From the NCBI GenBank assembly GCA_009773645.1, contig WSYB01000033.1, positions 1 through 62,376 of the forward strand: DNA of 62,376 bases, in the 5' to 3' direction. The translations under genes and the position numbers were made by a program. The notes under the pieces are model-generated. The model did not search any database. It was not told the DNA's origin and was given only the letters and a program-made list of their open reading frames with translations. Below are positions 17,756 through 35,928 of the stretch, one piece after another. The stretch is from Geobacteraceae bacterium. Lineage in GTDB: Bacteria; Desulfobacterota; Desulfuromonadia; Geobacterales; Geobacteraceae. The stretch's first letter is position 1. Each line of letters begins with the position of its first letter.

Positions 17756-18199
17756 TCACGGAAGCAGCTCGATGTTGTCCCCCGGCCTTACCATCCCTCC
17801 GTGCACGACCCTGGCAAATATCCCTTCTTTCGGCATCACGCAGTCCCCTGCCTGATGGTAGATCGCGCAGCGGGTGTGGCACTCCTTGCCGATCTGGGTT
17901 ACTTCCAAAAGCGTCTCACCCACGGCCAGCCGGGTGCCGAGCGGGAGCGACGGCAGGTCGATCCCTTGCGTTGTTATGTTTTCGGCGAAGTCGCCGGTCG
18001 TGACGTCAAGGCCGAGGGCTCGCATTTTTTCGATGCTCTCAATGGCGAGCAGGCTCACCTGCCGGTGCCAGTCGCCGGCATGGGCGTCCCCGACAATGCC
18101 GTGGTTTTCCTGCAACTGCACCTGTTCGACCGGTGTTTTTCGTTCACCCTTGTTCAGGCTCATGCAGACCGCCACAACTGTTCCCTGTTGCATCTTCAT
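17756..18199 (-). CDS. MOSC-domain protein
   Basis: A 147-residue single MOSC domain (MOCO sulfurase C-terminal type): LQENHGIVGDAHAGDWHRQVSLLA, DFAENITTQGIDL, and the conserved Cys in GKECHTRCAIY. Such stand-alone proteins are found near molybdenum cofactor genes and are proposed to handle sulfur or carry the cofactor. The start overlaps moaA by 4 bp, placing it firmly in the Moco operon. Confidence 0.9.
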   Translation of the reverse strand: MKMQQGTVVAVCMSLNKGERKTPVEQVQLQENHGIVGDAHAGDWHRQVSLLAIESIEKMRALGLDVTTGDFAENITTQGIDLPSLPLGTRLAVGETLLEVTQIGKECHTRCAIYHQAGDCVMPKEGIFARVVHGGMVRPGDNIELLP

Positions 18200-19176
18200 C
18201 CTCCTATCCGGTCCATGTCAATCCGTCCTTTTTCGCCGCCGCCTTCGGTAAGCTGGTGCCGGTCCGGCTTTTCGGCAACTACCCGGCAGAGTGCATCGCG
18301 GAGGGCGGCATCGTCGCCACCGGCAAGCACGGGGCGGAGGTCGACGGTCCCGCAGTCGAAGAGACAGCTCTTGGCAATGCCTGTCGAAGTTACCCGGATA
18401 CGGTTGCAGTCGCCACAGAAATGACAGGAGACCGGGGTGATCACCCCAACCAGCCCGGCTGCTCCGGCAATTCGCTGGTAGCGCGCCGGCCCTGCCAGGT
18501 TTTCGGAAGCCTCGTCTGTCATCGCGAACCGGCGTGACAGCCGCGCCAGTATCTCTGCACCGGGCATTACGGTTGCTTCCCAACCCGGCTCCGCCAGGGT
18601 CGGCATGTACTCGATAAAGCGCACCCGGTAGGGGCGATCAAGTGTCAGGGCGGCAAACTCTTCAAGCTCGTCATCATTGACGCCGCGCATAACGACCACA
18701 TTTATCTTGATGAATCTGAACCCGGCAGACTCGGCAGCGGCGATCCCGGCCAGCACCTGACGGAGGTCCCCACCACGGGTAATCGCCGCGAAGGTTTCCG
18801 GTCGCAGGGAATCCAGGCTGATATTGAGGCTTTCCACTCCGGCATCGCGCAACGGAACCGCCATCTCGGGGAGCATCACGCCGTTGGTGGTGAGCACCAG
18901 TCGCCGCAGACCGGGAATCGCCGCCAGTCGCCGCAGAAAGTCGATGATCCCCCGCCGCACCAGTGGTTCGCCGCCGGTCACCCGGATTTTCTCCACGCCG
19001 ATGGCCACCGCAGCACGGGCGACCCGCAGCAGTTCCTCGTAGCTCAGGATATCGCCGTGGCCGACCTTGACCCTCCCCTCGGCCGGCATGCAGTATCGGC
19101 AGCGGAGGTTGCAGCGGTCGGTTACGGAGAGGCGGAGGTAGTTTATCCTGCGCCCGTGGGGATCAACCAGGGTCAT
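18196..19176 (-). CDS. moaA: GTP 3',8-cyclase MoaA
   Basis: A 326-residue radical-SAM enzyme that starts molybdenum cofactor synthesis by cyclising GTP. The N-terminal cluster motif is CNLRCRYC (residues 22-29), with GGEPLVRRG and ISLDSL of the SAM barrel. The C-terminal substrate cluster is in CHFCGDCNRIRVTSTG plus the later Cys in KSCLF. The expected C-terminal GG is present (DRIGG). It overlaps moeA and MOSC genes by 4 bp each. No moaC, moaD or moaE is in view, so other Moco genes must lie elsewhere. Confidence 0.96.
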   Translation of the reverse strand: MTLVDPHGRRINYLRLSVTDRCNLRCRYCMPAEGRVKVGHGDILSYEELLRVARAAVAIGVEKIRVTGGEPLVRRGIIDFLRRLAAIPGLRRLVLTTNGVMLPEMAVPLRDAGVESLNISLDSLRPETFAAITRGGDLRQVLAGIAAAESAGFRFIKINVVVMRGVNDDELEEFAALTLDRPYRVRFIEYMPTLAEPGWEATVMPGAEILARLSRRFAMTDEASENLAGPARYQRIAGAAGLVGVITPVSCHFCGDCNRIRVTSTGIAKSCLFDCGTVDLRPVLAGGDDAALRDALCRVVAEKPDRHQLTEGGGEKGRIDMDRIGG

Positions 19177-20387
19177 AGCAAAACCTCTCCCATCTCGAAT
19201 CCCCGATCCAGCAGAAGGACTTCCACTTCGTCCCCCGTGGCATGCAACGCCTCGGGGGCCAGGCGTATCAGGCCGTTCCCCTGAATCAGCGACGAGAGGC
19301 GGCCGGAACTCTGATTGCCGGTGGTTGATACGTAATAGCGGCCATCGTGTATCGACACAATCCCACGGACCAGGTGGGGGCGTTTTCCTTTGTTTGCCGC
19401 CGGCTCCTGCAGGACCGCCTTGACCGACGGCTGGAAAATCCGCCGGCGCCCCATGGTCTTGAGAATTGACGGCCGCACGAACAGCTCGAACGAGACCATG
19501 GCGGCAACCGGGTTTCCCGGCAGGGCGAAGACCGGCTTCCCCTGCAACATGGCGAAAGCCAGGGGCTTGCCCGGTTTCATGTTGACCTTCCAGAAGGTGA
19601 CGCTGCCGCCGAGTTTTTCAATCGCCACCTTGACGAAATCCCGGTCGCCGACCGATACGCCGCCGGTAATGACCAGCAGGTCCGCATTCAGGCCGGCCCT
19701 GATCTTGTCGCAGGTGGTGTCGAGGGTGTCCGGGGCAATCCCCAGCAGCACAGGGTCACCCCCCGCATCCAGCACCTGCGCGGCCAGGCTGTAGCTGTTA
19801 CTGTTGATGATCTTGCCCGGCGCCGGTGTCGAGCCGGGCTCCAGGAGCTCATCGCCCGTGGCCAGGATGGCGACCCGCGCGCGGCGGTAAACGGCCAGGG
19901 ATGTTGTGCCCATGGCCGAGAGCATGCCGATTTCCTGGGGTCTGATGGTAGCACCGGCAGGGATGACGACAGTGCCGTGCCGGATGTCCTCGCCTCGCTT
20001 GCGCACGTGCGAACCCGCCTTGACTGCAGAGGTGAGGCGTATCCATTCGCCGTTCTCCTCGACATCTTCGATGGGTACTACCGTATCGCAGCCGCCAGGG
20101 ACCGGCGCGCCGGTCATGATCCTGATCGCTTCACCGGCTTGTACGGGGACGGAGCGCGCCTCTCCCGCCGGCAGAAAGCCGGTCACCCGGAGACGGTCGT
20201 TGCTCAACGTTGCATGGGAGAATGCAAACCCGTCCATGGCGGAGTTGTCGGCCGCCGGAATGTCCCACGGGGCGATGTGGTCCTCAGGAGTTACCCTGTT
20301 CAACCCCTGGAACACGGAAACCTTTTCCGTTTCCAGTGGAGTGATGTATTCCAGGATGGTCCGTTGCGCTTCCTCAATGCTTACCAT
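19173..20387 (-). CDS. moeA: Molybdopterin molybdenumtransferase MoeA
   Basis: A 404-residue cytoplasmic enzyme that inserts molybdate into adenylated molybdopterin. It has the MoeA domain order: N-terminal domains, DNSAMDGFAF, the MoCF-binding core with ILATGDELLEPG and VITGGVSVGDRDFVK, the FALPGNPVAA loop, and a C-terminal beta domain. It sits between a ModE-like gene and moaA in one unit. The product would feed the bis-MGD cofactor of ArrA. Confidence 0.96.
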   Translation of the reverse strand: MVSIEEAQRTILEYITPLETEKVSVFQGLNRVTPEDHIAPWDIPAADNSAMDGFAFSHATLSNDRLRVTGFLPAGEARSVPVQAGEAIRIMTGAPVPGGCDTVVPIEDVEENGEWIRLTSAVKAGSHVRKRGEDIRHGTVVIPAGATIRPQEIGMLSAMGTTSLAVYRRARVAILATGDELLEPGSTPAPGKIINSNSYSLAAQVLDAGGDPVLLGIAPDTLDTTCDKIRAGLNADLLVITGGVSVGDRDFVKVAIEKLGGSVTFWKVNMKPGKPLAFAMLQGKPVFALPGNPVAAMVSFELFVRPSILKTMGRRRIFQPSVKAVLQEPAANKGKRPHLVRGIVSIHDGRYYVSTTGNQSSGRLSSLIQGNGLIRLAPEALHATGDEVEVLLLDRGFEMGEVLL

Positions 20388-20438
20388 ACGCAGTTTCCCT
20401 TACCTTATCGTATTGAGCAAAAAAAGCACGTCGGATGC

Positions 20439-20852
20439 TCAAAAGTCGAGTTCGATGAACTTGCGGTTCACCATGTCGTTGAATCCTTTTTGCAGGAGAT
20501 CGAATTTATCCAGGAGAACGGCAGCCTGGGGGGTAAGGGACGATTCGCCGCCGCCGGGACCCCCCTTCAGGCGATTTACGAGGGGGAAACCCAACCGCTT
20601 TTCCATGGCGTCGATGTAAGTCCACGCCTTGCGGTAGGGAATTCCCATCGCCTTCGTCGCCGCATTGATCGAACCGGTCATTTGTATCAATCGCAGCAGT
20701 TCTTCCCGTCCTTGGCCGAACACCGGCTCACCGTCGATCTCCAGCCAGATCTTGGAGCGGACTTGGAGCACTGAACCGGAGCCGCTCATTTCCGGCAGGG
20801 GCGTCTTGCCGGTGTCCGATTTTGCCACGAATGAAACCCCCTTGACGGTCAT
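20439..20852 (-). CDS. ModE-type HTH regulator without a molybdate-binding domain
   Basis: A 137-residue protein with the ModE N-terminal winged helix (GREELLRLIQMTGSINAATKAMGIPYRKAWTYIDAMEKRLGFPLV). The C-terminal TOBE/molbindin domains of full ModE are absent, as in many stand-alone LysR-type-HTH ModE proteins. It overlaps mobA by 4 bp. It may regulate the Moco genes or molybdate uptake; without molbindin, its response to molybdate is uncertain. Confidence 0.88.
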   Translation of the reverse strand: MTVKGVSFVAKSDTGKTPLPEMSGSGSVLQVRSKIWLEIDGEPVFGQGREELLRLIQMTGSINAATKAMGIPYRKAWTYIDAMEKRLGFPLVNRLKGGPGGGESSLTPQAAVLLDKFDLLQKGFNDMVNRKFIELDF

Positions 20853-21445
20853 AGTTCTCCTCCTATTTTTGCAAATTCTTCCGGGGTGTTGACGTTCAGA
20901 AAAGCCCTTCCATCCCCGTCGAACCGGGCAAGTTCTTCGTACGCTACATGCCTGACCCGGACCTGCGGATAATAAGCGTAGGCACAGAAGTCACCGCTAT
21001 CGAGGAGCGTCCTGATCGGTTCGAGACAGCTTTTCGAGTAGAGTGCGAAGAGCGGTTCATAACCGTGCGTTGTGCTCGGTACTACGGCATCGAAACCGTC
21101 CCTCAGGGAGCAGAGGTAGCGGAGAACCTCCCTGCTCGGAAATGGGAGGTCGCAGGAGGAAACGAAAACGTACTCCGTTTCCGCGTTATGGAGTCCGGTA
21201 TAGAGTCCACCCAGGGCGCTGCCGGGGTAGATGTCCGGCAAAACGGGGAGGCCGTAGCCGGCAAAGCGCTCCTCCCGGTTTCCTACCAGGATGACCCGGT
21301 CGAAGCTGTCCCTGAACGCATCCAGTACCCGTTCGAAGAGGGGTTTGCCGGAAACTTCCAGGAACGCCTTGTCCCTTCCCATGCGGCGGCTCTTCCCGCC
21401 GACCAGGATCACGCCGGTGATGTCATGTTGCAGATTTTCGAGCAT
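20849..21445 (-). CDS. mobA: Molybdenum cofactor guanylyltransferase MobA
   Basis: A 198-residue nucleotidyltransferase that adds GMP to Mo-molybdopterin to give the bis-MGD form used by DMSO-reductase-family enzymes such as ArrA. Signatures are GVILVGGKSRRMGRDKAFL at the N-terminus, PDIYPGSALGGLYTGL, and VSSCDLPFPS. The start at 21445 uses a CGAGGATCC ribosome site supplied by the repeat at 21447-21475. The link to bis-MGD makes it directly relevant to the divergent arr operon. Confidence 0.94.
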   Translation of the reverse strand: MLENLQHDITGVILVGGKSRRMGRDKAFLEVSGKPLFERVLDAFRDSFDRVILVGNREERFAGYGLPVLPDIYPGSALGGLYTGLHNAETEYVFVSSCDLPFPSREVLRYLCSLRDGFDAVVPSTTHGYEPLFALYSKSCLEPIRTLLDSGDFCAYAYYPQVRVRHVAYEELARFDGDGRAFLNVNTPEEFAKIGGEL

Positions 21446-21815: not shown

Positions 21816-22892
21816 CTATTTGACTTCGGTAAATCCATATACGCCGACGGAACCGAAATAACGGCGCTGGAACCAGAATGCCACGTTGACCAGCCCGATC
21901 ATAACCGGCACCTCCACCAGCGGGCCGATGACCGCCGCGAAGGCTGCGCCGGAATTGAGGCCAAAGACCGCCACGGCCACGGCGATGGCCAGTTCGAAGT
22001 TATTGCTGGCGGCGGTAAAGGCCAGCGTGGTGGTCTTGGAATAGTCGGCGCCCAGCCGTTTTCCCATCCAGAAAGAGACCAGGAACATCAGCACAAAGTA
22101 GATCAGCATCGGGATGGCGATCCGCACCACGTCCATCGGCAGTTGCACGATCAGGTTCCCCTTGAGGCTGAACATGACCACAATAGTGAAAAGGAGCGCG
22201 ATCAGGGTAATGGGGCCGATTCGCGGCACCACCTCCCGGTGGTAGCGCTCCACCCCCATCCTTTTGACGCCGATGAGGCGCGTCAGCGCTCCGGCGATGC
22301 ACGGGATGCCCAGGTAGATGAAGACGCTCTCCGCGATCTGGCGAATGCTCACTTCCACAAGGCTCCCAGTCAGGCCGAACAGAGGCGGCAGGACCGTGAT
22401 GAAGAACCAGGCGTAGACGCTATAGAAAAGGACCTGGAAGATGCTGTTGAAGGCGACCAGGCCGGCGGCGTACTCGGTGTTTCCCTTGGCCAGTTCATTC
22501 CAGACGATCACCATGGCGATGCAGCGGGCGAGGCCGATCATGATGAGGCCGACCATGTACTCCGGCTTGTCGGGGAGAAAGACGATGGCCAAGATGAACA
22601 TGAGGATCGGCCCGATGAGCCAGTTCTGCACCAGCGAAAGCCCCAGGATCTTCTTGTTGCGGAAGACTTCGGGCATCTCCTCGTACTTCACCTTGGCGAA
22701 GGGGGGGTACATCATCAGGATCAGGCCGGCGGCGATGGGGATGTTGGTGGTCCCGACCTGGAAGCGGTTGATGAATGCTTCCACGCCGGGGACGAACCAG
22801 CCGAGCCCAACTCCGAGAGCCATGGCGGCGAAGATCCAGAAAGTGAGCCAACGGTCGAGGAAAGAGAGTTTTTTTGAAATGCCTCCGGACAT
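21816..22892 (-). CDS. acr3: Arsenite efflux transporter Acr3
   Basis: A 358-residue inner-membrane protein of about ten transmembrane helices that exports arsenite using the proton-motive force. Family marks include the essential-Cys segment [18 protein letters not shown] and the [17 protein letters not shown] helix. A GGAGGCACC ribosome site precedes ATG 22892. It is the expected partner of ArrAB, since arsenate respiration makes arsenite. Regulation by the ArsR encoded upstream is likely. Confidence 0.95.
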
Positions 22893-23051: not shown

Positions 23052-23079
23052 TTGCAATATCCGCTTGAACGGATATAAT
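23052..23079 (+). promoter_or_regulatory. Plus-strand sigma-70 promoter candidate antisense to arsR
   Basis: TTGCAA (23052-23057), a 16-bp spacer and a perfect TATAAT (23074-23079). It points toward arsR in the antisense direction and onward to the arr operon. The ArsR-type palindrome 23057-23076 overlaps both hexamers. No comparable sigma-70 promoter is evident in the 80 bp directly before the arr operon. Confidence 0.45.
23057..23076. promoter_or_regulatory. ArsR operator candidate 1
   Basis: ATATCCGCTTGAACGGATAT is a 20-bp palindrome with perfect 7-bp arms. It lies between the arsR stop and acr3 and shares arms with the site in the arsR promoter (23443-23462). It could control acr3, the antisense promoter, or both. 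Confidence 0.7.
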
Positions 23080-23093
23080 GGCGCAAAATTTTT

Positions 23094-23432
23094 TTAGGCG
23101 CAGCGATTCCCCTGTCCGAAACCAGCCAGCAGCTCACGGTCCGCCACTGATGTTCCGGTGTTGAGGAGTTGCTTTTTCAGGAGCGGGATTAACTCCTTCT
23201 GGTTTGCACTGCTGTCCCGTATGGAATAGTAGATCCAGAGCCCGCAACGGTGGTCGTTTACCCACCCGGCTTTCCTGAGATGGGCCAGGTGACGGGAAGT
23301 TGTCGACTGGGGTAGCTTCAAAGCCGCGATGATGTCGCAGACGCAGAGTTCCCCTTCGGACAGAAGAAGCGCCAGGATACGGAGTCGGGTTTCGTCCGCC
23401 AAAGCTTTATATAGTTGCACGTTTTGTTTCAT
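23094..23432 (-). CDS. arsR: ArsR-family arsenite-responsive repressor
   Basis: A 112-residue winged-helix repressor. The metalloid site ELCVCDII (Cys pair in the alpha3 helix, E. coli ArsR type) is intact, followed by the recognition helix LPQSTTSRHLAHLRKAGWV. Arsenite binding to the Cys residues releases DNA. Extra Cys residues lie in HRCGLW and at the C-terminal NRCA. No Shine-Dalgarno precedes ATG 23432 and the promoter -10 is only 7 bp away, so the mRNA is probably leaderless. It sits between acr3 and the divergent arr operon. Confidence 0.94.
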   Translation of the reverse strand: MKQNVQLYKALADETRLRILALLLSEGELCVCDIIAALKLPQSTTSRHLAHLRKAGWVNDHRCGLWIYYSIRDSSANQKELIPLLKKQLLNTGTSVADRELLAGFGQGNRCA

Positions 23433-23439
23433 GGGAAAA

Positions 23440-23468
23440 ACTATATCCGTTTAAAAGGATATGGTCAA
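23440..23468 (-). promoter_or_regulatory. arsR promoter
   Basis: On the minus strand TTGACC (23468-23463), a 17-bp spacer and TATAGT (23445-23440). Transcription should begin at or next to the A of the arsR ATG at 23432. The spacer holds the ArsR operator. Confidence 0.75.
23443..23462. promoter_or_regulatory. ArsR operator candidate 2
   Basis: ATATCCGTTTAAAAGGATAT has the same 20-bp length and ATATCC/GGATAT arms as 23057-23076. It fills the spacer of the arsR promoter and overlaps its -10, the standard place for autorepression. Confidence 0.75.
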
Positions 23469-23542
23469 GGACTTCTCAAGTGAATATCGAAGAGCCGCAT
23501 CAGGTGGCCGATTGTCAATTAATCATGAAGGAGGGAAAGCGG

Positions 23543-23854
23543 ATGAAAAATGCTCTGTTCTGGATTCCTGTGCTTGGAATATCTCTATGGCTGGGCGCCG
23601 CTCAGGCTGCTGTCGGTGGCGGCGACGTCACCCTGAAGAACAAGGGTGGCGATGTGATATTCAGCCATGGGGCGCATATTGATGGGGCGGGCCTCGAATG
23701 CGCCGCGTGCCATGACAAGCTCTATCTGAGCAAGGCCCAGCACAGGAAGGTCTCCATGAAGGAGATGCAGAAGGGTAAGTCGTGCGGCGCCTGCCACAAC
23801 GGCAAGAATGCCTTCAGTGTAAAAGGGAACTGTTCAAACTGTCATAAGAAATAA
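23543..23854 (+). CDS. Periplasmic triheme c-type cytochrome (c7-like)
   Basis: A 103-residue exported cytochrome. The signal peptide is MKNALFWIPVLGISLWLGAAQA. Three CXXCH motifs (CAACH, CGACH, CSNCH) and extra His residues (IFSHGAHIDG, QHRKVS) that can serve as distal ligands fit the c7/cytochrome c3 class with three bis-His hemes. The start at 23543 has GAAGGAGGGAAAG upstream; upstream in-frame ATGs lack one. It is the first gene of the arr operon, 19 bp before arrA. A likely role is carrying electrons to ArrAB, in place of the CymA tetraheme used in Shewanella. Confidence 0.9.
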   Translation: MKNALFWIPVLGISLWLGAAQAAVGGGDVTLKNKGGDVIFSHGAHIDGAGLECAACHDKLYLSKAQHRKVSMKEMQKGKSCGACHNGKNAFSVKGNCSNCHKK

Positions 23855-26455: not shown

Positions 26456-27226
26456 ATGCCAAAGCAATACGGAATGGTCATAGACCTGCAGAGGTGCGTC
26501 GGCTGCGGAGCCTGCGCCCTGGCCTGCAAGACCGAAAACAATACCCAGGACCGCGCCAAGGGACAGACCTTCAACTGGGCCGACTTCATCTACAAGGAAG
26601 AGGGGAAGTTCCCCAACGTGAAATACACCGCCATGCCGGTGCTATGCAACCACTGCTCCGACGCCCCCTGCGTCAAGGCCTGTCCGGTGAAGCCCAAGTC
26701 GATGTTCAAGACCGCCGACGGCATTACCATGCACAACGAAGGGCGCTGCATCGGCTGTCGCCGCTGCCAGAAGGCTTGTCCCTATAGTTCCATGGACGTG
26801 GGGAAGGACAAGGCCGCCTACAGCGTCATCAGCGTCAATGACGGCGTCGCGGAGCCTCACCCCTTCTACCGCGACGGCAACGAGCTGATCAAGGGGTGCA
26901 CCGCCTCCGGCGCCGAGACGGCCAAGCAGGCAGGGGACGTCCCTCCCCATCGTCACGATTATTCCCATCATGATTACGCAAGCGTCCGCAAGAAGGGGGT
27001 CGCGGAGAAGTGCATCTTCTGCGAACATCGTGTGAAAAAGGGAGAGCTTCCCAACTGCGTGGTCGCCTGTCCGTCGAAGGCGCGCATCTTCGGCGACCTG
27101 AACGACGCATCGAGCGAGCCGGCCAAACTGCTGAAGAAGTACAAGGCGATGCGCCTCAAGGAAGAGAAGGGGACCAGCCCCAATGTGGCTTATGTCAGGA
27201 ACTTCCGGGGTGCAAAAAAGGCTTGA
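26456..27226 (+). CDS. arrB: Arsenate reductase iron-sulfur subunit ArrB
   Basis: A 256-residue four-cluster ferredoxin subunit. Cys groups are C14/17/20/24, C64/67/72/76, C98/101/104/108 and C186/189/201/205, giving four [4Fe-4S] sites. It has no signal peptide, so it should be co-exported with Tat-signalled ArrA. A His-rich loop (DVPPHRHDYSHHDY) between clusters is notable. No membrane anchor subunit (ArrC/NrfD type) follows, so the complex probably docks to a cytochrome, perhaps the triheme protein upstream. It starts 14 bp after arrA with GGGAGG upstream. Confidence 0.94.
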   Translation: MPKQYGMVIDLQRCVGCGACALACKTENNTQDRAKGQTFNWADFIYKEEGKFPNVKYTAMPVLCNHCSDAPCVKACPVKPKSMFKTADGITMHNEGRCIGCRRCQKACPYSSMDVGKDKAAYSVISVNDGVAEPHPFYRDGNELIKGCTASGAETAKQAGDVPPHRHDYSHHDYASVRKKGVAEKCIFCEHRVKKGELPNCVVACPSKARIFGDLNDASSEPAKLLKKYKAMRLKEEKGTSPNVAYVRNFRGAKKA

Positions 27227-27334: not shown

Positions 27335-27973
27335 ATGAGCGTCACGAATGAAATGACCCTTTATCACAATCTTGAAATCTCCTACCGGCTCCTCTCGGCT
27401 TCCCTCTACCAGCCCTCTTTTGAATGGGGCGACGCGGATATATTTGCACATCTGAAGGGGGCGCTGCAGGTGGTCGCTCCAGCGGCGGCCGCTGGAGCTG
27501 AAGCCATGGAAGGAGTGCTCCGGGCTGGCGGCGAGACCGAATTGACATTGGTCTATGCCCGACTTTTTGTCGGGCCGTTTTCTTTGGGTGCGCCTCCGTA
27601 CGGATCTTTCTATCTGGAGCCTGAAAAAAAGGTCATGGGGGAGACCACCGTGGCGGTGCAGGAGTTTTACCGCCAGGCGGGGCTCGCTCTGGACGAAGAC
27701 TTTACGGAACTCCACGATCATATGGCGGTGGAGCTGGAATTCATCTCATATCTTCTCCGGTCTGCCGTGTCGGAAGCGGCAGAGAGGGGGGAGGCGGCTT
27801 CTACCGAGTGGGTTGACAGGCGCAGGGAGTTTCTGCGACGGTTTCTCGTTGGATGGTACGGCGATTTTTGCGCCGCCATTCGCGAAGCTACGGATAACCC
27901 CTTTTACCTTGCCTATGCGGACTGTCTCGAAGCAGTGGTCGGGCGGGACCGGGAGTTACTGGGACTTAAATAA
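27335..27973 (+). CDS. arrD: TorD-family chaperone for ArrA
   Basis: A 212-residue all-helical cytoplasmic chaperone of the TorD/DmsD class that holds a Tat molybdoenzyme until its cofactor is inserted. Conserved segments are YARLFVGPFSLGAPPYGSFYLEPEKKVMG and DFTELHDHMAVELEFISYLL. Position after arrAB makes ArrA its client. It lies beyond a terminator-like hairpin, so expression may be lower than that of arrAB. Confidence 0.9.
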   Translation: MSVTNEMTLYHNLEISYRLLSASLYQPSFEWGDADIFAHLKGALQVVAPAAAAGAEAMEGVLRAGGETELTLVYARLFVGPFSLGAPPYGSFYLEPEKKVMGETTVAVQEFYRQAGLALDEDFTELHDHMAVELEFISYLLRSAVSEAAERGEAASTEWVDRRREFLRRFLVGWYGDFCAAIREATDNPFYLAYADCLEAVVGRDRELLGLK

Positions 27974-29004: not shown

Positions 29005-31197
29005 TCAGACAGCAATGTACGACGATTCACCAGACACATTATCCTGCGGGTCTGCGGCCGTCACGGTAATACTTCCGACCCTGAAGGCATCCATTTCCTT
29101 CTGGAGAATTCCTGTCTGGTCTGAAAGGAAGTTAACTGCCGTATCGAGGATCTTGGTTGCGTCGAGATTCTTTCCGGTCGATTTCTCTATTTTATTGACT
29201 GCCTGAACAATTCTGTTACTGGACTCGGACTGAATAGCGCACGCTGACTTGATGTTGTTGATCATCCAGGTAATGTTTTCCGTGGACCTGGCGATTGTGC
29301 CGCTCACTTTTGCCTGTTCTCTGGTGGATATGCAGACCTGACCGGCAAATCCCGACATTCGCTCGACTGTGACTGCAATAAAATCACTGGCTTTTGCCTG
29401 CTCTTTCGTCGCACTTCCGATCTGCCGGACCATCAAGGAAACCTTTTCCATAGCCTCGTTGATCATTCTGCTCCCCCCAGACTGCTCCACAGCGGCGCGG
29501 GCAATTGTGTCCATCCTGTCGGTCGAGCTCTTCACCCCGGCAACAATCTTTTCAAGCGCCTCTCCCGATTTTCTGGAAAGGAGGGATCCTTCCTCAATGC
29601 TCTTCTCCGCGGAGTCTATCGCCTGCACAGCCCTTTCGGTCTCCTGCTGGACCCCTTTGATCAATTGCGTGATCTCTCCTGTAGAGCTCTTGGTTCTTTC
29701 GGCAAGCTCTTTGATTTCGTCGGCAACGACCGCAAACCCTTTGCCGTGTTCTCCGGCCTGGGCGGCAATAATGGCGGCATTGAGGGCCAGCAGGTTTGTC
29801 TGTCCGGTCAAATCGTCTATGACTTTGATAATGGCGCCGATGTTTTCGGCTTTTTCGGACAGGGCGGTGATTACGTCAGCGGTAATCAAGGAAGAACTAC
29901 GAATTTCATCCATCCCGGCGATGGTGGCTTCCACTGAGTCTTTGCCTGTCTCGGCATCCTTCAGGACTTCTTTGGCGATTGCCGCTGTTTCCCGTGAGTT
30001 TCTTTCGATCTCCTTGATGGAGGAGTCCATCTGGGAAACAGAGGACGCAGTGGTGGTGGAAGTGTCCATGAGAGCCGAGGCGCTATCGCTGATCTGCTTT
30101 ATTGCCGACGCTATCTCGGCAATGGAAGAGCTGACCTCTTCTACGGATTCAACCAGGGATTCCATATTGACAGCTACTTCTTCCACGCTTGCAGCCATTT
30201 CCAGTATGGAAGAAGATGTTTCCGAAGCTGAAACGGAAAGACTGTCAACTCCTTGCGCCACTTCCGCCACTGACGTATTGATAGCCTGTACGGCCAGTGC
30301 GGTTTCTTTAATATCTGCTGCCTGGAAATCGGCAGTCTCCATTACAGTCTTCGATGCCTGAAAGATGTTCCCGGATACCCCGGCAAGGTCCCGCGCCGAG
30401 GCATTGATCCTGTTTACCATGTTGCCCAGGCTTCCCACCATTTTATTGAGGGAGGCGGAGAGTTCGCCGATCTCATCACTGGAATTTACCTCAATGGTCT
30501 CGGAAAGGTTTCCTTCCGCCACCGATTGAGCGAATATGACCCCTTGCCGCAGTGGTTTGGTGACCGATCTTGCCACCACAGTTATGGTGAAGAGGACGAT
30601 GAGGAAAAGTGCCGCACTGATGCCGCCCGCCAGAATAATCTTTTGTCGGATGACCGCTCCCGTTACGGTTTCACGTTCTTCAATTTCAAGCCGCAGGGTG
30701 TCGACGGTATTTCCAACCTGTTCGATGAAGCGGTCGTAGCGCATCTTCTGGATGGTCTTTGTCAGCTCACGGGCCTTTTCGCGATTTGCCCGGCGTGCCG
30801 CGGGTATCTGCTCGTTTTCCATGGTGTCGGCAAATTCCTGCCAGGTCGCTTGGGCATCCTGGACCGCTACCTTCTTTTCTTCCGAGTCCATCTTCATTGT
30901 GATGGCGGCGAATTTTTCGTTGATGTCGGATGTGAGTTGCTGAAGATTGCCGAGGATCTGCTGCTGCTCATCGCTGCTGGTTTCAGCGATCAGGTTGATC
31001 AGTTCGGCCCTGACCTGGTTCAGGTCGGACTTCAGGAGGGCGATCTGTTCGATTGAGTCTTTGGAATTTTTGATGTTCGAATAAATTTTGCTGCCGATTT
31101 TTACCTCGTTGATGGTGTAGTACCCCATGCCAAGCGAGATAAGAAAGCCGAGAAAGACCACCAAAATGAGGGAGAGCATCTTGGTGGTGATTTTCAT
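29005..31197 (-). CDS. Methyl-accepting chemotaxis protein 1
   Basis: A receptor of about 730 residues: N-terminal helix ([21 protein letters not shown]), a helical periplasmic sensor of about 150 residues, second helix ([22 protein letters not shown]), HAMP, and a long cytoplasmic signalling hairpin. The tip reads [31 protein letters not shown], a class differing from the AIEAARAG tip of receptor 2. The start at 31197 (MKITTKML) has only a weak ribosome site; the longer frame to 31278 runs through the upstream terminator. It follows the PstS-like gene on the same strand, and that pairing suggests the binding protein is its ligand carrier. Confidence 0.88.
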
Positions 31198-31260
31198 CCG
31201 ACCAGCAAAATTCAAGCTATGTTTGAGTCTCAAGGGGAGCACTCCTACGGAAAAGGTTAA

Positions 31261-31285
31261 GCACCGCATGGCGGCCATGCGGTGC
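31261..31285 (-). terminator. Hairpin terminator after PstS-like gene 1
   Basis: GCACCGCATGG, CGG loop, CCATGCGGTGC: a perfect 11-bp stem in the gap between the binding-protein stop (31302) and the chemoreceptor start, with TTAACCTTTT after it on the minus strand. Confidence 0.6.
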
Positions 31286-31301
31286 TGATGGGGCGGGAAA
31301 T

Positions 31302-32126
31302 CTAATTTCCCTTACGCACCGGTACGAAATTCCTGGATACGATGGCCTGCCCTTCGGCTGAAATAATGAAGCTGATAAACTCCTTTACTTCTCCTTTCGG
31401 CACCCCTTTGGTCACCAGGTTCAGCGGCCTGGAGATCAGGTATGCGCCGGAGCGGGTGTTTTTGTCGTCGGGACTGACGCCGTTCACGGAAATAGACTTT
31501 ACTTTCCCCCTGATGTCGGCCGGAAGGGTAGCGTAGAGGCCGAGGCTGACGGTACAGACGGCATTTTCATCCTTTGCGACCTCAACGATCTGTTCGCGGG
31601 GGAGGTCGATCTGCTTGAACTTGGCGTGCGGGGCACCGTCGAGGACATGTTCCTGGAACATCTCGATCGTGGCCCGTTTCCCATCCAGAATTTCGGTGTT
31701 AGGTACGATAGGGGCGTTCTTTCCCCCCACTTCCTGCCAGTTCCTGATCTTTCCGGTGAAAATTCCCTTGAGCTGCTCCTTGGTCAGATTCTTGATCGGA
31801 TTGTTTTTATGAATGAAGACCGCCACGGCATCATAACCAATGGTCGTCGAGGAGAGCTTTTCCTTCTTCTCCTCAGGTTTGAGCGGCCTGGAGGCCCCCG
31901 CCAGAACTACCTTGCCTTCGATCAGGGCTTTTACCCCCTTACCGGAACCGGGAATGTCCACGGAAGCGAACTTTTTCCCGCTTTTCTTTTCGAAAGCCTC
32001 CACCGCCCCAGCCTTCAAAACGCCGGTGCCGATGGTTGACGAGCCACTGTAGGTGATTTCTGCCAGTGCGGTGTGGGGAAGGACAATGAGGACAGCAAAC
32101 AGCGTGAAGAACAGATTTTTAAACAT
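31302..32126 (-). CDS. PstS-like periplasmic binding protein 1
   Basis: A 274-residue exported protein starting at [22 protein letters not shown] behind CAGGAGGCAATC; a longer frame to 32225 adds no conserved sequence. It has the phosphate-binding-protein pattern: [44 protein letters not shown] and [21 protein letters not shown]. No PstC, PstA or PstB gene is nearby, so it is unlikely to serve an adjacent importer. It lies upstream of receptor 1 and divergent from PstS-like gene 2. The ligand may be phosphate, arsenate or another oxyanion. Confidence 0.88.
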
Positions 32127-32471
32127 TGATTGCCTCCTGTTGCAGAAAATATCGCAGAGATTGATACGGCTGGCCGGGAAGATGATAAAAACTGAGACCG
32201 CCACCTGCGGCGCTTCAAGTGACATGGAGAAAACGCCCGCTGAAACGAATCACTTTCCGGTAAGTTATACAGCTTCAGCTCAGTCATTGGCAAGGGAAAA
32301 AGGGGAGTCATGCAGCCCGTTTTTTTTGTCTGCAATCTCAGGGTTTGAAGGTGCGGGCGATCACCCTCAAATCCCGGCAATTCAATGCGAACGAATTAAT
32401 GTTATCGTGCTAAAGATTTCCCGGAGAACGCCGAAAAATGACTTATAGATAATACATTTGAGGAGGATAAA
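32127..32471. other. 345-bp regulatory gap between divergent binding-protein genes
   Basis: No coding sequence is visible. It contains the sigma-28 promoter (32411-32437) for the plus-strand genes. No matching sigma-28 site was found for the minus-strand gene, and no convincing sigma-70 site either. A run of T residues near 32312 follows a GC-rich stretch without a good hairpin. Confidence 0.6.
32411..32437 (+). promoter_or_regulatory. Sigma-28 (FliA) promoter for PstS-like gene 2
   Basis: TAAAGATT (32411-32418), an exact 11-bp spacer, then GCCGAAAA (32430-32437), one mismatch in each half from TAAAGTTT-N11-GCCGATAA. The predicted transcript starts near 32444, 28 bp before ATG 32472. Sigma-28 drives late flagellar and chemotaxis genes. 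Confidence 0.75.
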
Positions 32472-33275
32472 ATGAGCAAAAAGGGACTGACTTCATCCGT
32501 TATGCAGCGGAAAACGACCTTGTTTGCGGCAGCTTTGCTGCTGTTGGGAGCCGCCCAGGTCGCCCAGGCCGAAACCGTGAAACTCCACGGTTCCACAACC
32601 GTCCAGAAGAGGATCATGGAGCCGGGCAAGGAGGCACTGAAAAAAGCGGCCGGCATTGACCTGGTGCTGGTGGGCAACGGCACCGGCAATGGTCTGGAAG
32701 ATCTGGTAAGCGGGAAGTGCGACGCTTCCATGGCTTCGGAAGAGCTGGCCGACGCAGTCGCCAGCATGAAGGACGCCAGCGGCAAGGAGGCGGCTGCCGA
32801 TCTTGTGCCCCACGTCATTACGACGGATGTCATCAAGGTTATCGTCCATCCGTCCAACACCGTGACCAAATTATCCAAGGAGCAACTGAAAGGGCTGCAC
32901 AACGGTTCCATTGCAAACTGGAAAGAAGTGGGCGGTCCCGACCAGGGGGTAATCGTCATCACGTCGCATCTTGGTTCGGCGACGAGAAAGGTTTTCCAGA
33001 AAACGGTCATGGACGGCGCCAAGTACGTTGACGGTGCCATCGAAGTGGAAACGACCCGCAAGGAAATCGACAATGTTTCCCAGTTCCCGGAAGCGATCGG
33101 CGCAGTCAGCATGGGTTTCATCAACCTCCCCGGCAACAGGGAGAAGGTGAAAATTGTCGAAACGCAGGAAATAAGCCGCCCGCTCATGCTGATCACAAAG
33201 GGTGAGGCATCCCCGGGGGTGAAAAAGGTCGTCGACTTTTTCAAGGGTGAAGGGAAAAAGCACATAAAGGATTAG
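32472..33275 (+). CDS. PstS-like periplasmic binding protein 2
   Basis: A 267-residue exported protein with a signal peptide ending AAQVAQA (cleavage about residue 33). Binding-lobe motifs are KLHGSTTVQKRIMEPG, VGNGTGNGLEDLVSGKCDASMASEEL and SKEQLKGLHNGSIANWKEVGG. It is diverged from gene 1. The start follows GAGGAGGATAAA and the gene lies 28 bp from a predicted sigma-28 start site, so expression is probably tied to motility. Receptor 2 follows 85 bp downstream. It may present a bound oxyanion to that receptor. Confidence 0.88.
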   Translation: MSKKGLTSSVMQRKTTLFAAALLLLGAAQVAQAETVKLHGSTTVQKRIMEPGKEALKKAAGIDLVLVGNGTGNGLEDLVSGKCDASMASEELADAVASMKDASGKEAAADLVPHVITTDVIKVIVHPSNTVTKLSKEQLKGLHNGSIANWKEVGGPDQGVIVITSHLGSATRKVFQKTVMDGAKYVDGAIEVETTRKEIDNVSQFPEAIGAVSMGFINLPGNREKVKIVETQEISRPLMLITKGEASPGVKKVVDFFKGEGKKHIKD

Positions 33276-33292
33276 CCGAGGATGCAGATAGT

Positions 33293-33324
33293 GAAGGGAG
33301 GACGGTTGTTGCCGTGCTCCCTTC
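33293..33324 (+). terminator. Hairpin between binding protein 2 and receptor 2
   Basis: GAAGGGAGGACGG and CCGTGCTCCCTTC pair over 13 bp with one mismatch around TTGTTG. The following tract is only weakly T-rich, so partial attenuation is more likely than full termination. Confidence 0.5.
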
Positions 33325-33360
33325 GCCTCTGTTTGTCAAAACATAAAAGCGAGAGAACGT

Positions 33361-35928
33361 ATGACCATCAAGACAAAGCTTTTTGCAAACATGATGCTGA
33401 CCATCATCGGTATCCTGGTCATCGGCGGCTTCAGCCTCGCAGGGATGAAATTCGTGCAAAGCAAGCTCTCGGTCCTCACTGAACAGTCAACCCCCTACCA
33501 GTTGAAAACGATAGAGCTTCAGCGGGCTTTGCAGGAACATACCTCGAACCTGATCAAGCTCGCCACGTCAACCTCGATGGCTGATTTCAATGCCACCAGG
33601 AGCGACGCCGAGAAAACTCTCGCCGACGTAAAAACCGCGTCGGGTGAACTCGCCGGCTTTAAGTCGTCCGGGGAAGGCAATAACAACTCCTCAGTCCAGG
33701 AACTGGAAGGGATCACCACGGAGCTGTTCAAGACTACCCAGGAGCGGCTGCAGGCCGAGGCAGCCGGCAAAGCGGCCGATGCCCTGACGAAAAAGAAGCT
33801 GCAGGACATTGCCGGACGGCTGCGGGAGATGGATGGCGCCATGAAGACCGTTCAAAAAAGCTCCATGCACCAGCTTTCGTCCTCCAACGACAGCGTCAAG
33901 ACCATCACCCAGAAGGTGAAAAACACCCAGGCGGCGACCAGTACCCTCAATGACGTAAAAATTGCCATCCTGGAAATTTCCGCCGCCGACACCAAAACGG
34001 CGCTCACCGTCGCAAAAAGCCATTTTACGGTTGCTGCACGGCTTGTCACGCAAAGCAATCTCGTAAAGGCCGACAAGTCCGGCACCGTTGCGAAAGAACT
34101 GACCGAGGGCGTTGAAGAGATCACCAAGCGGGTAACTGCTCCACAGGGGCTGCTGGAACTTAAAACATCTTTGTTGATAACCCCTGACGAAGAGACTAAG
34201 AAGAAATTTACCCAGGCGGTCGCCCAGGTCAATCAAAAGCTGGCGCAACTGACGGTTATCATGGGGGACACGGTCGAAAAGGCGGCCGAAGATTTTGCCT
34301 CGGAGGATAAAAAATTCGACAGTTCGCTGAAGGGGGCAAACTCGGCCGGCGACATCATGGCGTCAACCAGTGAACTGATTGCCCTTGGTTCGGACGTCAG
34401 CAGGCTGATAAACGAGCTTTTCAGCGCCGCGACCGTCCAGCAGCTGGACGTCATCAAGGGACAGCTCATCCTCAAATTCGAGAGTGCCGCTGCCGTGCAG
34501 AGAAGGGTTGCAGCGTACAAGTCGGCCTCCGGTAAAGCGGGTCAGGTCGGGAAGTTCAACAGCGTGGCCGGGTCCCTGAACGATATCAGGGGCCTCCTGC
34601 TGGTGAAGGACGGGGCTGCAGAGAAGCTTGCCCATATCATCAGGGTCAAGGCACAGGCGCAGGCACTCAACGACAAACTGAAAGATCTGGTTGCCAAGCA
34701 GCGTGAGGAAGGGAAGAAGGGAGTGACCTCGGCCCAGGCGGAACAGGAAAAGGCCGTAAAATCGGTCAATCGGGTTTTCAGAACCAACATAACGTCGGTA
34801 GCTATCATTGCCCTCGTCGTGCTGGTTTTGGGCGTCGTGTTCAGCTTCGGACTGGTCAAATCCATTACCAGCCCCATCAAGGAATTAATCGATATCTCCG
34901 AGAAGTTCGGCAACGGCGATTTTACCAGCAGCCTTGACGAAAAGCGCAAGGACGAGTTTGGCGCGCTGGCCGTTCATTTCAACCAGGCAACCGCCAAACT
35001 GAAGGATATAACATCCCAGATTCGGGAGGCCATCGGCAACCTTGCCCAGAATTCCAACACCCTCACGGCGACCGCCGAGGAGCTGAGTGTGGGGGCGCGG
35101 CAACAGGCGACCCAGACCGACCAGTCCGCCTCGGCCATGACGGAAATGACCCAGACAATCCAGGATGTGGCCCATAACGCCCATGAGGCGGCAGCTGAAA
35201 CGAAAAATGCCCTTGATTTGGCGGCAAACGGGCAGAAAATCGTCAGCGAGACGGTTCAGGGCATGGAGGAAATTGCCGCGGCTGTCCGGGAAACAGCGGA
35301 AACCATCAGGCTCCTCGGCGAAAACTCGGCAAAGATCGGCTCGGTGGTTGATGTCATCAACGAAATCGCCGACCAGACCAATCTCCTCGCCCTTAACGCT
35401 GCAATTGAGGCGGCCCGTGCCGGTGATGCCGGTATGGGGTTTGCCGTGGTCGCCGATGAAGTCCGCAAGCTGGCGGAAAAGACAGGCGAGTCAACCAAGG
35501 AAATTGCCGAAATGGTGGCGCAGATTCAGGCAAACACACAGAGATCGGTCAAGGCGATGGAAAAGGGAACCGTCAAGGTTGTAGAGGGGACGCAGCGTGC
35601 GAATGAGGCCAACCGCTCCCTCGAATCGATCGTCCAGGCATCTACCAGAGGTGTCGACATGGTGCAGACCATTGCCACTGCGGCGGAAGAGCAGTCGGCA
35701 GTGGCTGCCGGAGTTTCCACGAGCATGGAACAAATAGCCGCAATTACCCGTGCAGCGGAATCGTCCACCAGCGGGATAACCCATGCCGCCGAGGAGCTCA
35801 ACCTACTCGCTGACGGCCTTAACCGCATGGCGGAATGGTTCAAGATGGAAAGCACCTCGCAGAATGTCCTGAAATTGCCCCCCCAGGTTGAGCGTATTGC
35901 CGCGACCCGCACCGTGAAGCGAATATAG
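33361..35928 (+). CDS. Methyl-accepting chemotaxis protein 2, large periplasmic domain
   Basis: An 855-residue receptor. The first membrane helix is at about 8-30 ([21 protein letters not shown]) and the second at about 477-500 ([20 protein letters not shown]), leaving a very long helical periplasmic region of about 440 residues. HAMP follows ([21 protein letters not shown]), then the signalling hairpin with tip [36 protein letters not shown]. There is no C-terminal CheR-tethering pentapeptide. The periplasmic size allows docking of a binding protein such as the PstS-like product just upstream. The ribosome site before ATG 33361 is modest. Confidence 0.92.

What the first reader, a model, noticed from the sequence alone, without database searches (positions are those of the whole stretch)
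29005..35928. Two orphan PstS-like proteins paired with two chemoreceptors: candidate oxyanion-taxis module
Each chemoreceptor gene follows a PstS-like periplasmic protein gene on the same strand, the two pairs being divergent. No PstCAB transporter is present, and the block directly follows the arr operon. Periplasmic binding proteins that present ligands to chemoreceptors are known, as are As(III)-binding proteins with sensor kinases (AioX/AioS); a PstS-type arsenate or phosphate carrier for chemotaxis would be new to me. Arsenate as ligand is inferred only from context and its similarity to phosphate.
Basis: partly seen in the sequence, partly recalled or inferred. Interest (0 to 1): 0.8.

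Follow-up and report, generated by a model that had tools for sequence, protein, structure and literature searches.

The report
Arsenic-linked binding-protein and chemoreceptor pairs
Two small secreted binding proteins, each encoded beside its own chemoreceptor, recur next to arsenic-respiration and arsenic-resistance genes in related bacteria and once in another phylum, so they probably let the cell sense an arsenic oxyanion, though the ligand itself has not been tested.

Summary
In detail: two divergent pairs, each a secreted PBP_like_2 protein followed by a chemoreceptor, directly beyond the arr cluster, without Pst transporter genes. Binding-protein-fed chemoreceptors, even PstS-fed phosphate taxis (CtpL), are known. 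PBP2 orthologues occur in 14 of 141 genomes of the order, followed by MCP2 in 13 of the 13 where the contig goes on. In 10 of 14 an arsR, arsC, acr3 or arrA lies within 10 kb, against 1 of 20 loci of paralogous binding proteins. One Nitrospirota genome carries acr3-arsR/PBP2-MCP2-arrX-arrX-arrS-arrR-arrA; nine other Nitrospirota carriers show no arsenic gene nearby. In some genomes the pair follows a TtrA-like molybdoenzyme, a type implicated in arsenate respiration elsewhere. The modelled MCP2 sensor domain best matches TorS, which binds the periplasmic protein TorT. PBP2 lacks the PstS phosphate-clamp arginine and PBP1's loop is rebuilt, so 'phosphate carrier' is doubtful. MCP1 has a divergent signalling tip and may feed another pathway. 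Best reading: transporter-free sensing of an arsenic oxyanion, probably arsenate. The pairs belong to a larger family of PBP_like_2-chemoreceptor pairs with unknown ligands.

The parts
29005..31278 (-). MCP1: chemoreceptor, 4HB periplasmic domain, HAMP, MCP signalling domain; divergent tip [16 protein letters not shown]; likely start 31197
   Evidence: orthologue beside the PBP1 orthologue in G009, G028, G011
31302..32126 (-). PBP1: secreted PBP_like_2 protein upstream of MCP1 (ORF open to 32225)
   Evidence: closest solved chains are PstS-type phosphate-binding proteins
32127..32471 (.). 345-bp intergenic region between the divergent pairs; no ArsR-type palindrome found
32472..33275 (+). PBP2: secreted PBP_like_2 protein upstream of MCP2, highly conserved orthologous group
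33361..35928 (+). MCP2: chemoreceptor with about 440-residue all-helical periplasmic domain resembling TorS; canonical signalling tip
21816..22892 (-). acr3 arsenite efflux transporter (context)
   Evidence: TIGR00832, 453 bits, cut-off 282.8
23094..23432 (-). arsR-type regulator (context)
   Evidence: NF033788, 95.3 bits, cut-off 55
23480..23854 (+). triheme c7-type cytochrome (context)
   Evidence: TIGR04257
23856..26441 (+). arrA respiratory arsenate reductase catalytic subunit (context)
   Evidence: NF041714 1015.8 bits, cut-off 1600 not reached; next-best model 278 bits; 0 of 141 genomes of the order reach that cut-off
26456..27226 (+). arrB iron-sulfur subunit (context)
   Evidence: NF041715 245.3 bits, cut-off 450
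27335..27973 (+). TorD/DmsD-like chaperone (context)
   Evidence: PF02613; NF003442 below cut-off

Best explanation
PBP2 and PBP1 are secreted, transporter-free sensor proteins that bind an arsenic oxyanion in the periplasm, most likely arsenate, the substrate of the adjacent reductase. Ligand-loaded PBP2 docks on the TorS-like helical domain of MCP2, and PBP1 on the four-helix domain of MCP1. This changes the activity of a CheA-linked array and so steers the cell, or for MCP1 possibly another Che output, with respect to a respirable but toxic oxyanion. Shown: gene pairs, domains, conserved pairing, association with arsenic loci (ten genomes of the order, one of another phylum), TorS-like model. 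Inferred: arsenic as ligand, arsenate rather than arsenite, complex formation, taxis as output.
For: Pairing: 23 of 23 PBP2 orthologues (67% identity or more) whose contig goes on are followed by an MCP2 orthologue: 13 in the order, 10 in Nitrospirota. Arsenic context: arsR, arsC, acr3 or arrA within 10 kb in 10 of 14 carriers of the order, in several arrangements, against 1 of 20 paralogue loci; Fisher p 7e-5, or 0.003 with carriers counted once per genus. A Nitrospirota genome (G662, L307) has PBP2-MCP2 inside an acr3-arsR/arrXSR-arrA locus. Genome-wide, arrA or the TtrA-like enzyme occurs in 10 of 14 carriers and 31 of 127 others, p 7e-4. PBP1: in the five genomes with an orthologue of 75% or more, or a 62% contig-end fragment (58 relatives searched), an arrA or TtrA-like gene lies within about 12 kb. 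MCP2 sensor model: TorS Z 18.0 over 270 of 273 residues. [quoted passage not shown] Two flagellin-type ORFs are in the genome.
Against: Nine of ten Nitrospirota carriers show no arsenic gene near the pair by these queries, and in two of six (G143, G146) the ArrA search gave neither arrA nor a TtrA-like orthologue. Of the order's 14 carriers G017 has no arsenic gene near, G009 only the TtrA-like enzyme, G023 and G078 end with their contigs. In four carriers (G083, G106, G107, G662) arrXSR, the known arsenate-sensing set, is already beside the pair. Two further PBP1 homologues (50-51%, G014 and G019) stand without MCP or arsenic genes. In a draw of 395 genomes of the window's phylum only the window's own passed 1e-60 at over 50% identity. 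No ArsR-type palindrome lies upstream of PBP2 in the window. The pocket cannot be read as an arsenate site from sequence. The tests are not corrected for relatedness.
Confidence: 0.5

Rival explanations
1. The pairs sense arsenite, the toxic product of arsenate reduction, for example as a repellent or alarm signal.
For: Association is as much with ars resistance genes (arsR, arsC, acr3) as with arrA, for example G056, G082, G094. In Agrobacterium GW4 an MCP encoded in an arsenic island binds As(III) and not As(V) (PMC5335332, passages). PBP2 has an acidic residue (E90) and no PstS arginine at the aligned pocket positions, compatible with a neutral hydroxylated ligand (inference).
Against: No cysteine position is conserved across PBP2 orthologues, unlike Cys106 listed in the AioX pocket. 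Taxis to arsenite has less obvious use for an arsenate respirer (inference).
Confidence: 0.2
2. The pairs sense phosphate or another oxyanion (tetrathionate, selenate, antimonate), and arsenic loci are where such sensors are useful or were carried along.
For: Closest solved chains are phosphate-binding proteins. In six genomes (PBP2 in G001, G009, G028, G051; PBP1 in G009, G028, G011, G049) the linked molybdoenzyme is TtrA-like, substrate unproven. Nine of ten Nitrospirota pairs have no arsenic neighbours.
Against: PstS arginine absent from PBP2 and loop rebuilt in PBP1; NCBIfam PstS cut-offs not reached; no PstA or PstC near. TtrA-like loci themselves carry arsR, arsC or acr3 in 6 of 12 genomes.
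Confidence: 0.2
3. The receptors are not for taxis: at least MCP1 feeds an alternative Che pathway (gene expression, matrix or pili).
For: MCP1's tip reads [16 protein letters not shown] where most tips matched in this genome, MCP2's included, read [10 protein letters not shown]; tip to C terminus is 263 residues against 182 in MCP2. Geobacter has several Che clusters, some thought not to serve motility (PMC2577667, abstract and part 3 of section 3 read).
Against: MCP2 has a canonical tip; the array to which either belongs was not determined.
Confidence: 0.3
4. Passenger genes: the pairs landed in arsenic islands by chance and have unrelated ligands.
For: The PBP_like_2-MCP family is large in the order, mostly without arsenic genes (15 of 20 control loci have an MCP2-type neighbour).
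Against: 10 of 14 against 1 of 20, with several different gene orders, and one case in a second phylum.
Confidence: 0.12

Closest known systems
CtpL with PstS, Pseudomonas aeruginosa (PMC4926252, passages)
   Same: PstS-fold binding protein loads an oxyanion and stimulates a chemoreceptor.
   Different: There PstS is the Pst transporter's own subunit; here each binding protein is encoded beside its receptor with no transporter, and PBP2 lacks the PstS arginine.
TorS with TorT (TMAO respiration)
   Same: MCP2's modelled sensor domain matches TorS over nearly the whole domain (Z 18.0, 270 of 273 residues, 13% identity); periplasmic protein paired with a receptor for an anaerobic electron acceptor.
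   Different: Output is an MCP, not a histidine kinase; the binding protein is PstS-like, not TorT-like (TorT's class recalled).
AioX/ArxX/ArrX with AioS/ArxS/ArrS (PMC5908839, passages)
   Same: Transporter-free sensor protein encoded with an arsenic molybdoenzyme; an ArrX homologue lies beside PBP2-MCP2 in G083, G106, G107 and G662.
   Different: PhnD-type protein and kinase; PBP1 and PBP2 belong to another family, and no ArrX homologue is in the window.
Mcp of Agrobacterium tumefaciens GW4 (PMC5335332, passages)
   Same: Chemoreceptor gene in an arsenic island.
   Different: Its sensor domain binds As(III) directly; the authors state that As(V) taxis implies a different system.
Other PBP_like_2-MCP pairs (for example L171, L170, L172 in this genome)
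   Same: Same architecture; L171's MCP shares the long sensor domain (30% identity).
   Different: Pocket motifs differ strongly; arsenic genes near 1 of 20 control loci.

Membership tests
PstS (Pst phosphate transporter binding protein) | Type II PBP of the PBP_like_2/PstS group | tested here: met
   PF12849 over cut-off; phmmer and Foldseek best hits are PstS-type chains; PBP2 model is poor, pLDDT 60.5
PstS (Pst phosphate transporter binding protein) | Curated PstS score | tested here: not met
   TIGR02136 163.2 and 118.3 bits against 206.6; TIGR00975 about 25 against 205; the genome's own PstS reaches 417 on TIGR00975
PstS (Pst phosphate transporter binding protein) | Encoded with pstCAB | tested here: not met
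   No PstA or PstC homologue in the window or 27 other neighbourhood sequences; own pst operon on another contig
PstS (Pst phosphate transporter binding protein) | PBP2: pocket arginine before the GSGT loop (Arg135 of E. coli, numbering recalled) | tested here: not met
   Own PstS HRSDGSGT; PBP2 TSHLGSAT
PstS (Pst phosphate transporter binding protein) | PBP1: the same arginine | tested here: inconclusive
   Loop reads [11 protein letters not shown] with a two-residue insertion that holds an Arg; alignment there is uncertain; GASRPL is kept
Binding-protein-dependent chemoreceptor (CtpL-PstS type) | MCP with periplasmic domain, HAMP and signalling domain | tested here: met
Binding-protein-dependent chemoreceptor (CtpL-PstS type) | Cognate secreted binding protein, conserved pairing | tested here: met
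Binding-protein-dependent chemoreceptor (CtpL-PstS type) | Physical complex of loaded binding protein with the sensor domain | not testable with these tools
   single-chain models only
TorS-type sensor domain | Fold of the periplasmic domain | tested here: met
   Z 18.0, rmsd 3.1, 270 aligned; next unrelated row 14.4, McpZ 14.2; a shared fold does not prove function
TorS/TorT system | Histidine kinase output | tested here: not met
   MCPsignal domain, no kinase domain in Pfam
AioX/ArrX/ArxX family | PhnD-like sequence relationship | tested here: not met
   ArrX of L073 matches PhnD models; tblastn of it finds nothing in the window at 1e-5
HBM-type chemoreceptor domain (McpS, CtpL; membership of CtpL recalled) | Fold | tested here: inconclusive
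   McpS 13.6, below TorS and within the range common for helical bundles

The most novel reading that the evidence does not exclude
PBP2-MCP2 is the first dedicated arsenic (probably arsenate) chemosensory pair: a transporter-free PstS-derived sensor protein with a TorS-like receptor, exchanged between phyla and joined to either of two kinds of arsenate reductase, letting cells navigate toward respirable arsenate at concentrations too low for direct receptor binding. It is one specialised clade of a large family of PBP_like_2-chemoreceptor pairs whose ligands are unknown.
Probability: 0.42. Interest if true: 0.75.

Novelty: new variant of a known kind. Interest (0 to 1): 0.6.

Why it matters
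Arsenate respiration mobilises arsenic into groundwater (general knowledge). How such bacteria find arsenate is open: the GW4 study saw As(V) taxis in all its strains and inferred another, unknown system (PMC5335332, passages). A search of the open-access library for six arsenate-taxis phrases returned no paper; it is a phrase search only, and did not return even that study. The pairs give concrete candidate genes. They also point to a broad family of binding-protein-fed chemoreceptors in metal-reducing bacteria, for which searches turned up no describing paper.

Tried and rejected
As(III)-binding cysteines: most PBP2 orthologues have one cysteine in the aligned mature part, but at either of two positions (GSTTC or GKCD), and G094 at neither; not used as evidence.

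Arg196 (TTRKEI) as an arsenic marker: present in 21 of 21 PBP2 orthologues aligned (67% or more) and 3 of 3 PBP1 orthologues, absent from 32 of 32 control proteins (Lys in 4), but also present in 3 of 5 sister proteins of 46-57% identity whose loci show no arsenic genes. It marks the clade, not the ligand. The broken or partial copies of G028, G082 and G106 were left out of that alignment; G126 (47%) was counted with the sisters.

ArsR-type palindromes upstream of PBP2: found in 3 of 19 upstream regions (G056, G082, G107), two of them shared with the divergent arsC; none in the window. Base-shuffled regions gave a hit in 190 of 3800 at the same three mismatches; the G082 and G107 sites have none. 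Too patchy to claim ArsR control.

PBP2 structure: model too weak (pLDDT 60.5) to place the pocket. HBM and McpZ were considered for MCP2; both rank below TorS in VIA-align, while Foldseek puts McpZ first. ArrA against ArxA was not tested; no tree was made.

Literature: the Geobacter chemotaxis review PMC8396549 (passages) and the 2008 Geobacter Che paper have no PstS hit by term search. PMC9602780 and PMC3834237 were seen as passages. Papers not cited by passage or section here were seen only as search listings.
Full report
WHAT IS THERE. Behind acr3, arsR, a triheme cytochrome, arrA, arrB, a TorD-like chaperone and a 4Fe-4S protein stand two divergent pairs: PBP1 then MCP1 on the minus strand, PBP2 then MCP2 on the plus strand. 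Both small proteins are PBP_like_2 proteins, both large ones chemoreceptors. PBP1 and PBP2 share 32% identity over 241 aligned positions.

NOT ALONE IN THE GENOME. Twelve PBP_like_2 matches occur in this genome, 11 over the family's cut-off. Besides the two here, three stand directly upstream of a chemoreceptor gene (L170, L171, L172) and two upstream of a sensor kinase gene (L167, L168); one is the PstS of a pstSCAB operon (L165) and another a second PstS-like protein near a phoU-like gene (L166, by eye). So the architecture is a recurrent theme, and the finding is one case of it.

CONSERVED UNITS. Within the order (141 genomes held) 14 genomes have a PBP2 orthologue of 77% identity or more, whole or in part; a fifteenth match (G126) has 47%. 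MCP2 follows in 13 of 13 where the contig goes on; in G082 it ends inside PBP2, and in G056 PBP2 is split over two contig ends. PBP1 orthologues of 75-82% occur in G009, G028 and G011 with MCP1 downstream, and a 62% fragment at a contig end in G049; two homologues of 50-51% (G014, G019) have no MCP or arsenic genes beside them (58 relatives searched). Ten Nitrospirota genomes carry PBP2 orthologues of 67-81% identity, each followed by MCP2; in a draw of 295 genomes of that phylum 8 passed E 1e-60, 6 of them at 67% or more. In a draw of 395 genomes of the window's own phylum 3 passed, the window's genome and two at 46-48%. PBP2 is much more conserved than the MCP2 sensor domain (67-87% against 39-62% to the window). 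Such identity across phyla suggests horizontal transfer (inference; no tree was made).

ARSENIC CONTEXT. Counting arsR, arsC, acr3 or arrA within 10 kb of PBP2: window, G001, G028 (arsR only), G051, G056, G082, G083, G094, G106 and G107, that is 10 of 14. Of the other four, G009 has only the TtrA-like enzyme, G017 has none, and G023 and G078 are cut by contig ends. The arrangements differ: divergent arsC-acr3 or arsR beside PBP2, arrXSR-arrAB downstream of MCP2, or TtrB-TtrA-PBP2-MCP2 in series. As control I took 20 loci of paralogous PBP_like_2 proteins (34-40% identity to PBP2) with up to 10 kb on each side, some shorter at contig ends: 15 of 20 have a full-length MCP2-type receptor gene beside them, 1 of 20 has an arsenic gene (a partial acr3 match about 9 kb away, L282; a 25% match to ArrA in L292 was not counted). 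Fisher p is 7e-5, or 0.003 with carriers counted once per genus and controls as they are. Genome-wide, arrA (30 genomes by my reading, partial genes included) or the TtrA-like enzyme (12) occurs in 10 of 14 carriers and 31 of 127 other genomes, p 7e-4. None of these tests corrects for relatedness. In Nitrospirota, one of ten carriers (G662) has acr3-arsR diverging from PBP2-MCP2-arrX-arrX-arrS-arrR-arrA; the other nine show no arsenic gene nearby by the same queries, though L310 has weak TtrB- and TorD-like matches (28-29%). Of six Nitrospirota carriers searched for ArrA, G142 and G145 have arrA; among the loci returned, G141 and G144 have a TtrA-like orthologue (66%; G141 also a 39% ArrA relative), G143 and G146 neither.

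THE TTRA-LIKE NEIGHBOUR. The roughly 1,080-residue enzyme beside the pairs in G001, G009, G028 and G051, and near PBP1 in G011 and G049, scores 494 bits on the TtrA model (cut-off 1,750) and 121 on ArrA in the G009 copy. It has arsR, arsC or acr3 nearby in 6 of 12 genomes (G001, G011, G028, G039, G049, G051). Ttr-type enzymes are assigned to arsenate respiration in Pyrobaculum aerophilum, and in Melioribacter roseus ttrA rose with arsenate but not significantly (PMC7331816, PMC5492636, passages). Its substrate here is unknown.

POCKETS. Against the genome's own PstS (motifs GSGGG, GASDKFL, HRSDGSGT), PBP2 reads NGTGNG, MASEEL, TSHLGSATR; PBP1 reads [23 protein letters not shown]. The arginine before the GSGT loop is gone from PBP2, which keeps an acidic residue where PstS has Asp. 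In PBP1 the loop is rebuilt with an insertion that itself holds an Arg, so loss there is uncertain. Most paralogues paired with receptors have quite different motifs (for example GAGGAPTEN, AAAAGLS). So the family has diversified, and PstS homology alone does not name the ligand.

RECEPTORS. The modelled MCP2 periplasmic domain (18 sequences, mean pLDDT 82.3, pTM 0.54) is all helical. Foldseek ranks McpZ first and TorS:TorT complexes next; VIA-align puts TorS first, Z 18.0 over 270 of 273 residues, with the first unrelated row at 14.4 and McpZ at 14.2. That tool's notes give a typical best Z of 14 for helical models without a clear match, so the margin is what counts. MCP1 has a 4HB domain and a signalling tip unlike the canonical one of MCP2; three other receptors of the genome (L187, L192, L196) have a similar tip. 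Its array is unknown. Two flagellin-type ORFs are present.

MECHANISM AND LIMITS. By analogy with CtpL-PstS (passages of PMC4926252), TorS-TorT and AioX/ArrX (passages of PMC5908839), the simplest mechanism is ligand-loaded binding protein docking on the receptor. Shown here: genes, pairing, context, fold resemblance. Not shown: binding, complex, output. Arsenate is preferred because the linked enzymes are arsenate reductases or candidates, but arsenite, phosphate or another oxyanion remain open. A search for six arsenate-taxis phrases in the open-access library returned no paper; subscription papers are not covered.

Noticed in passing
L146:13442-16690 (G009), L153:14458-17691 (G001), L155/L156 (G051), L157 (G011), L252 (G039), L256 (G049): A TtrA-like molybdoenzyme of about 1,080 residues, with a TtrB-like subunit, lies among arsR, arsC or acr3 genes in 6 of 12 genomes of the order that have it: a candidate arsenate (or antimonate) reductase outside the Arr clade.
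   Followed up: partly
L171 (G000:C60), L170 (G000:C9), L172 (G000:C35), L167 (G000:C36), L168 (G000:C28); control loci L280-L294: A large family of PBP_like_2 proteins encoded directly before chemoreceptors (some in tandems of two or three) or before sensor kinases, with diverse pocket motifs and unknown ligands.
   Followed up: partly
window 23057-23076 and 23443-23462: Two ATATCCG-N6-CGGATAT-like palindromes flank arsR (0.07 matches expected by chance); the same box recurs beside arsR, arsC, acr3 or arrX genes in several relatives, so it is probably the ArsR operator.
   Followed up: partly
window 29005-31278: MCP1 has the tip [16 protein letters not shown] instead of [11 protein letters not shown]; a similar tip occurs in L187, L192 and L196 of this genome, suggesting a separate signalling array.
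   Followed up: partly
L148/L149 (G028): The TtrA-like genes, PBP1, PBP2, MCP1 and several neighbours are broken in frame in this assembly; sequencing error or decay was not distinguished.
   Followed up: no
window 17756-21445: Molybdenum-cofactor genes (moaA over its cut-off, a moeA-like gene below full-length cut-offs) stand upstream of the acr3-arsR-arr block, and homologues of the window's moeA gene also lie near TtrA-like loci in G011, G017 and G039.
   Followed up: no
L264 (G142:C46): A Nitrospirota arrA, 84% identical to the window's, has an MCP2-type receptor gene (38% identity) directly upstream, a further receptor-arr association.
   Followed up: no
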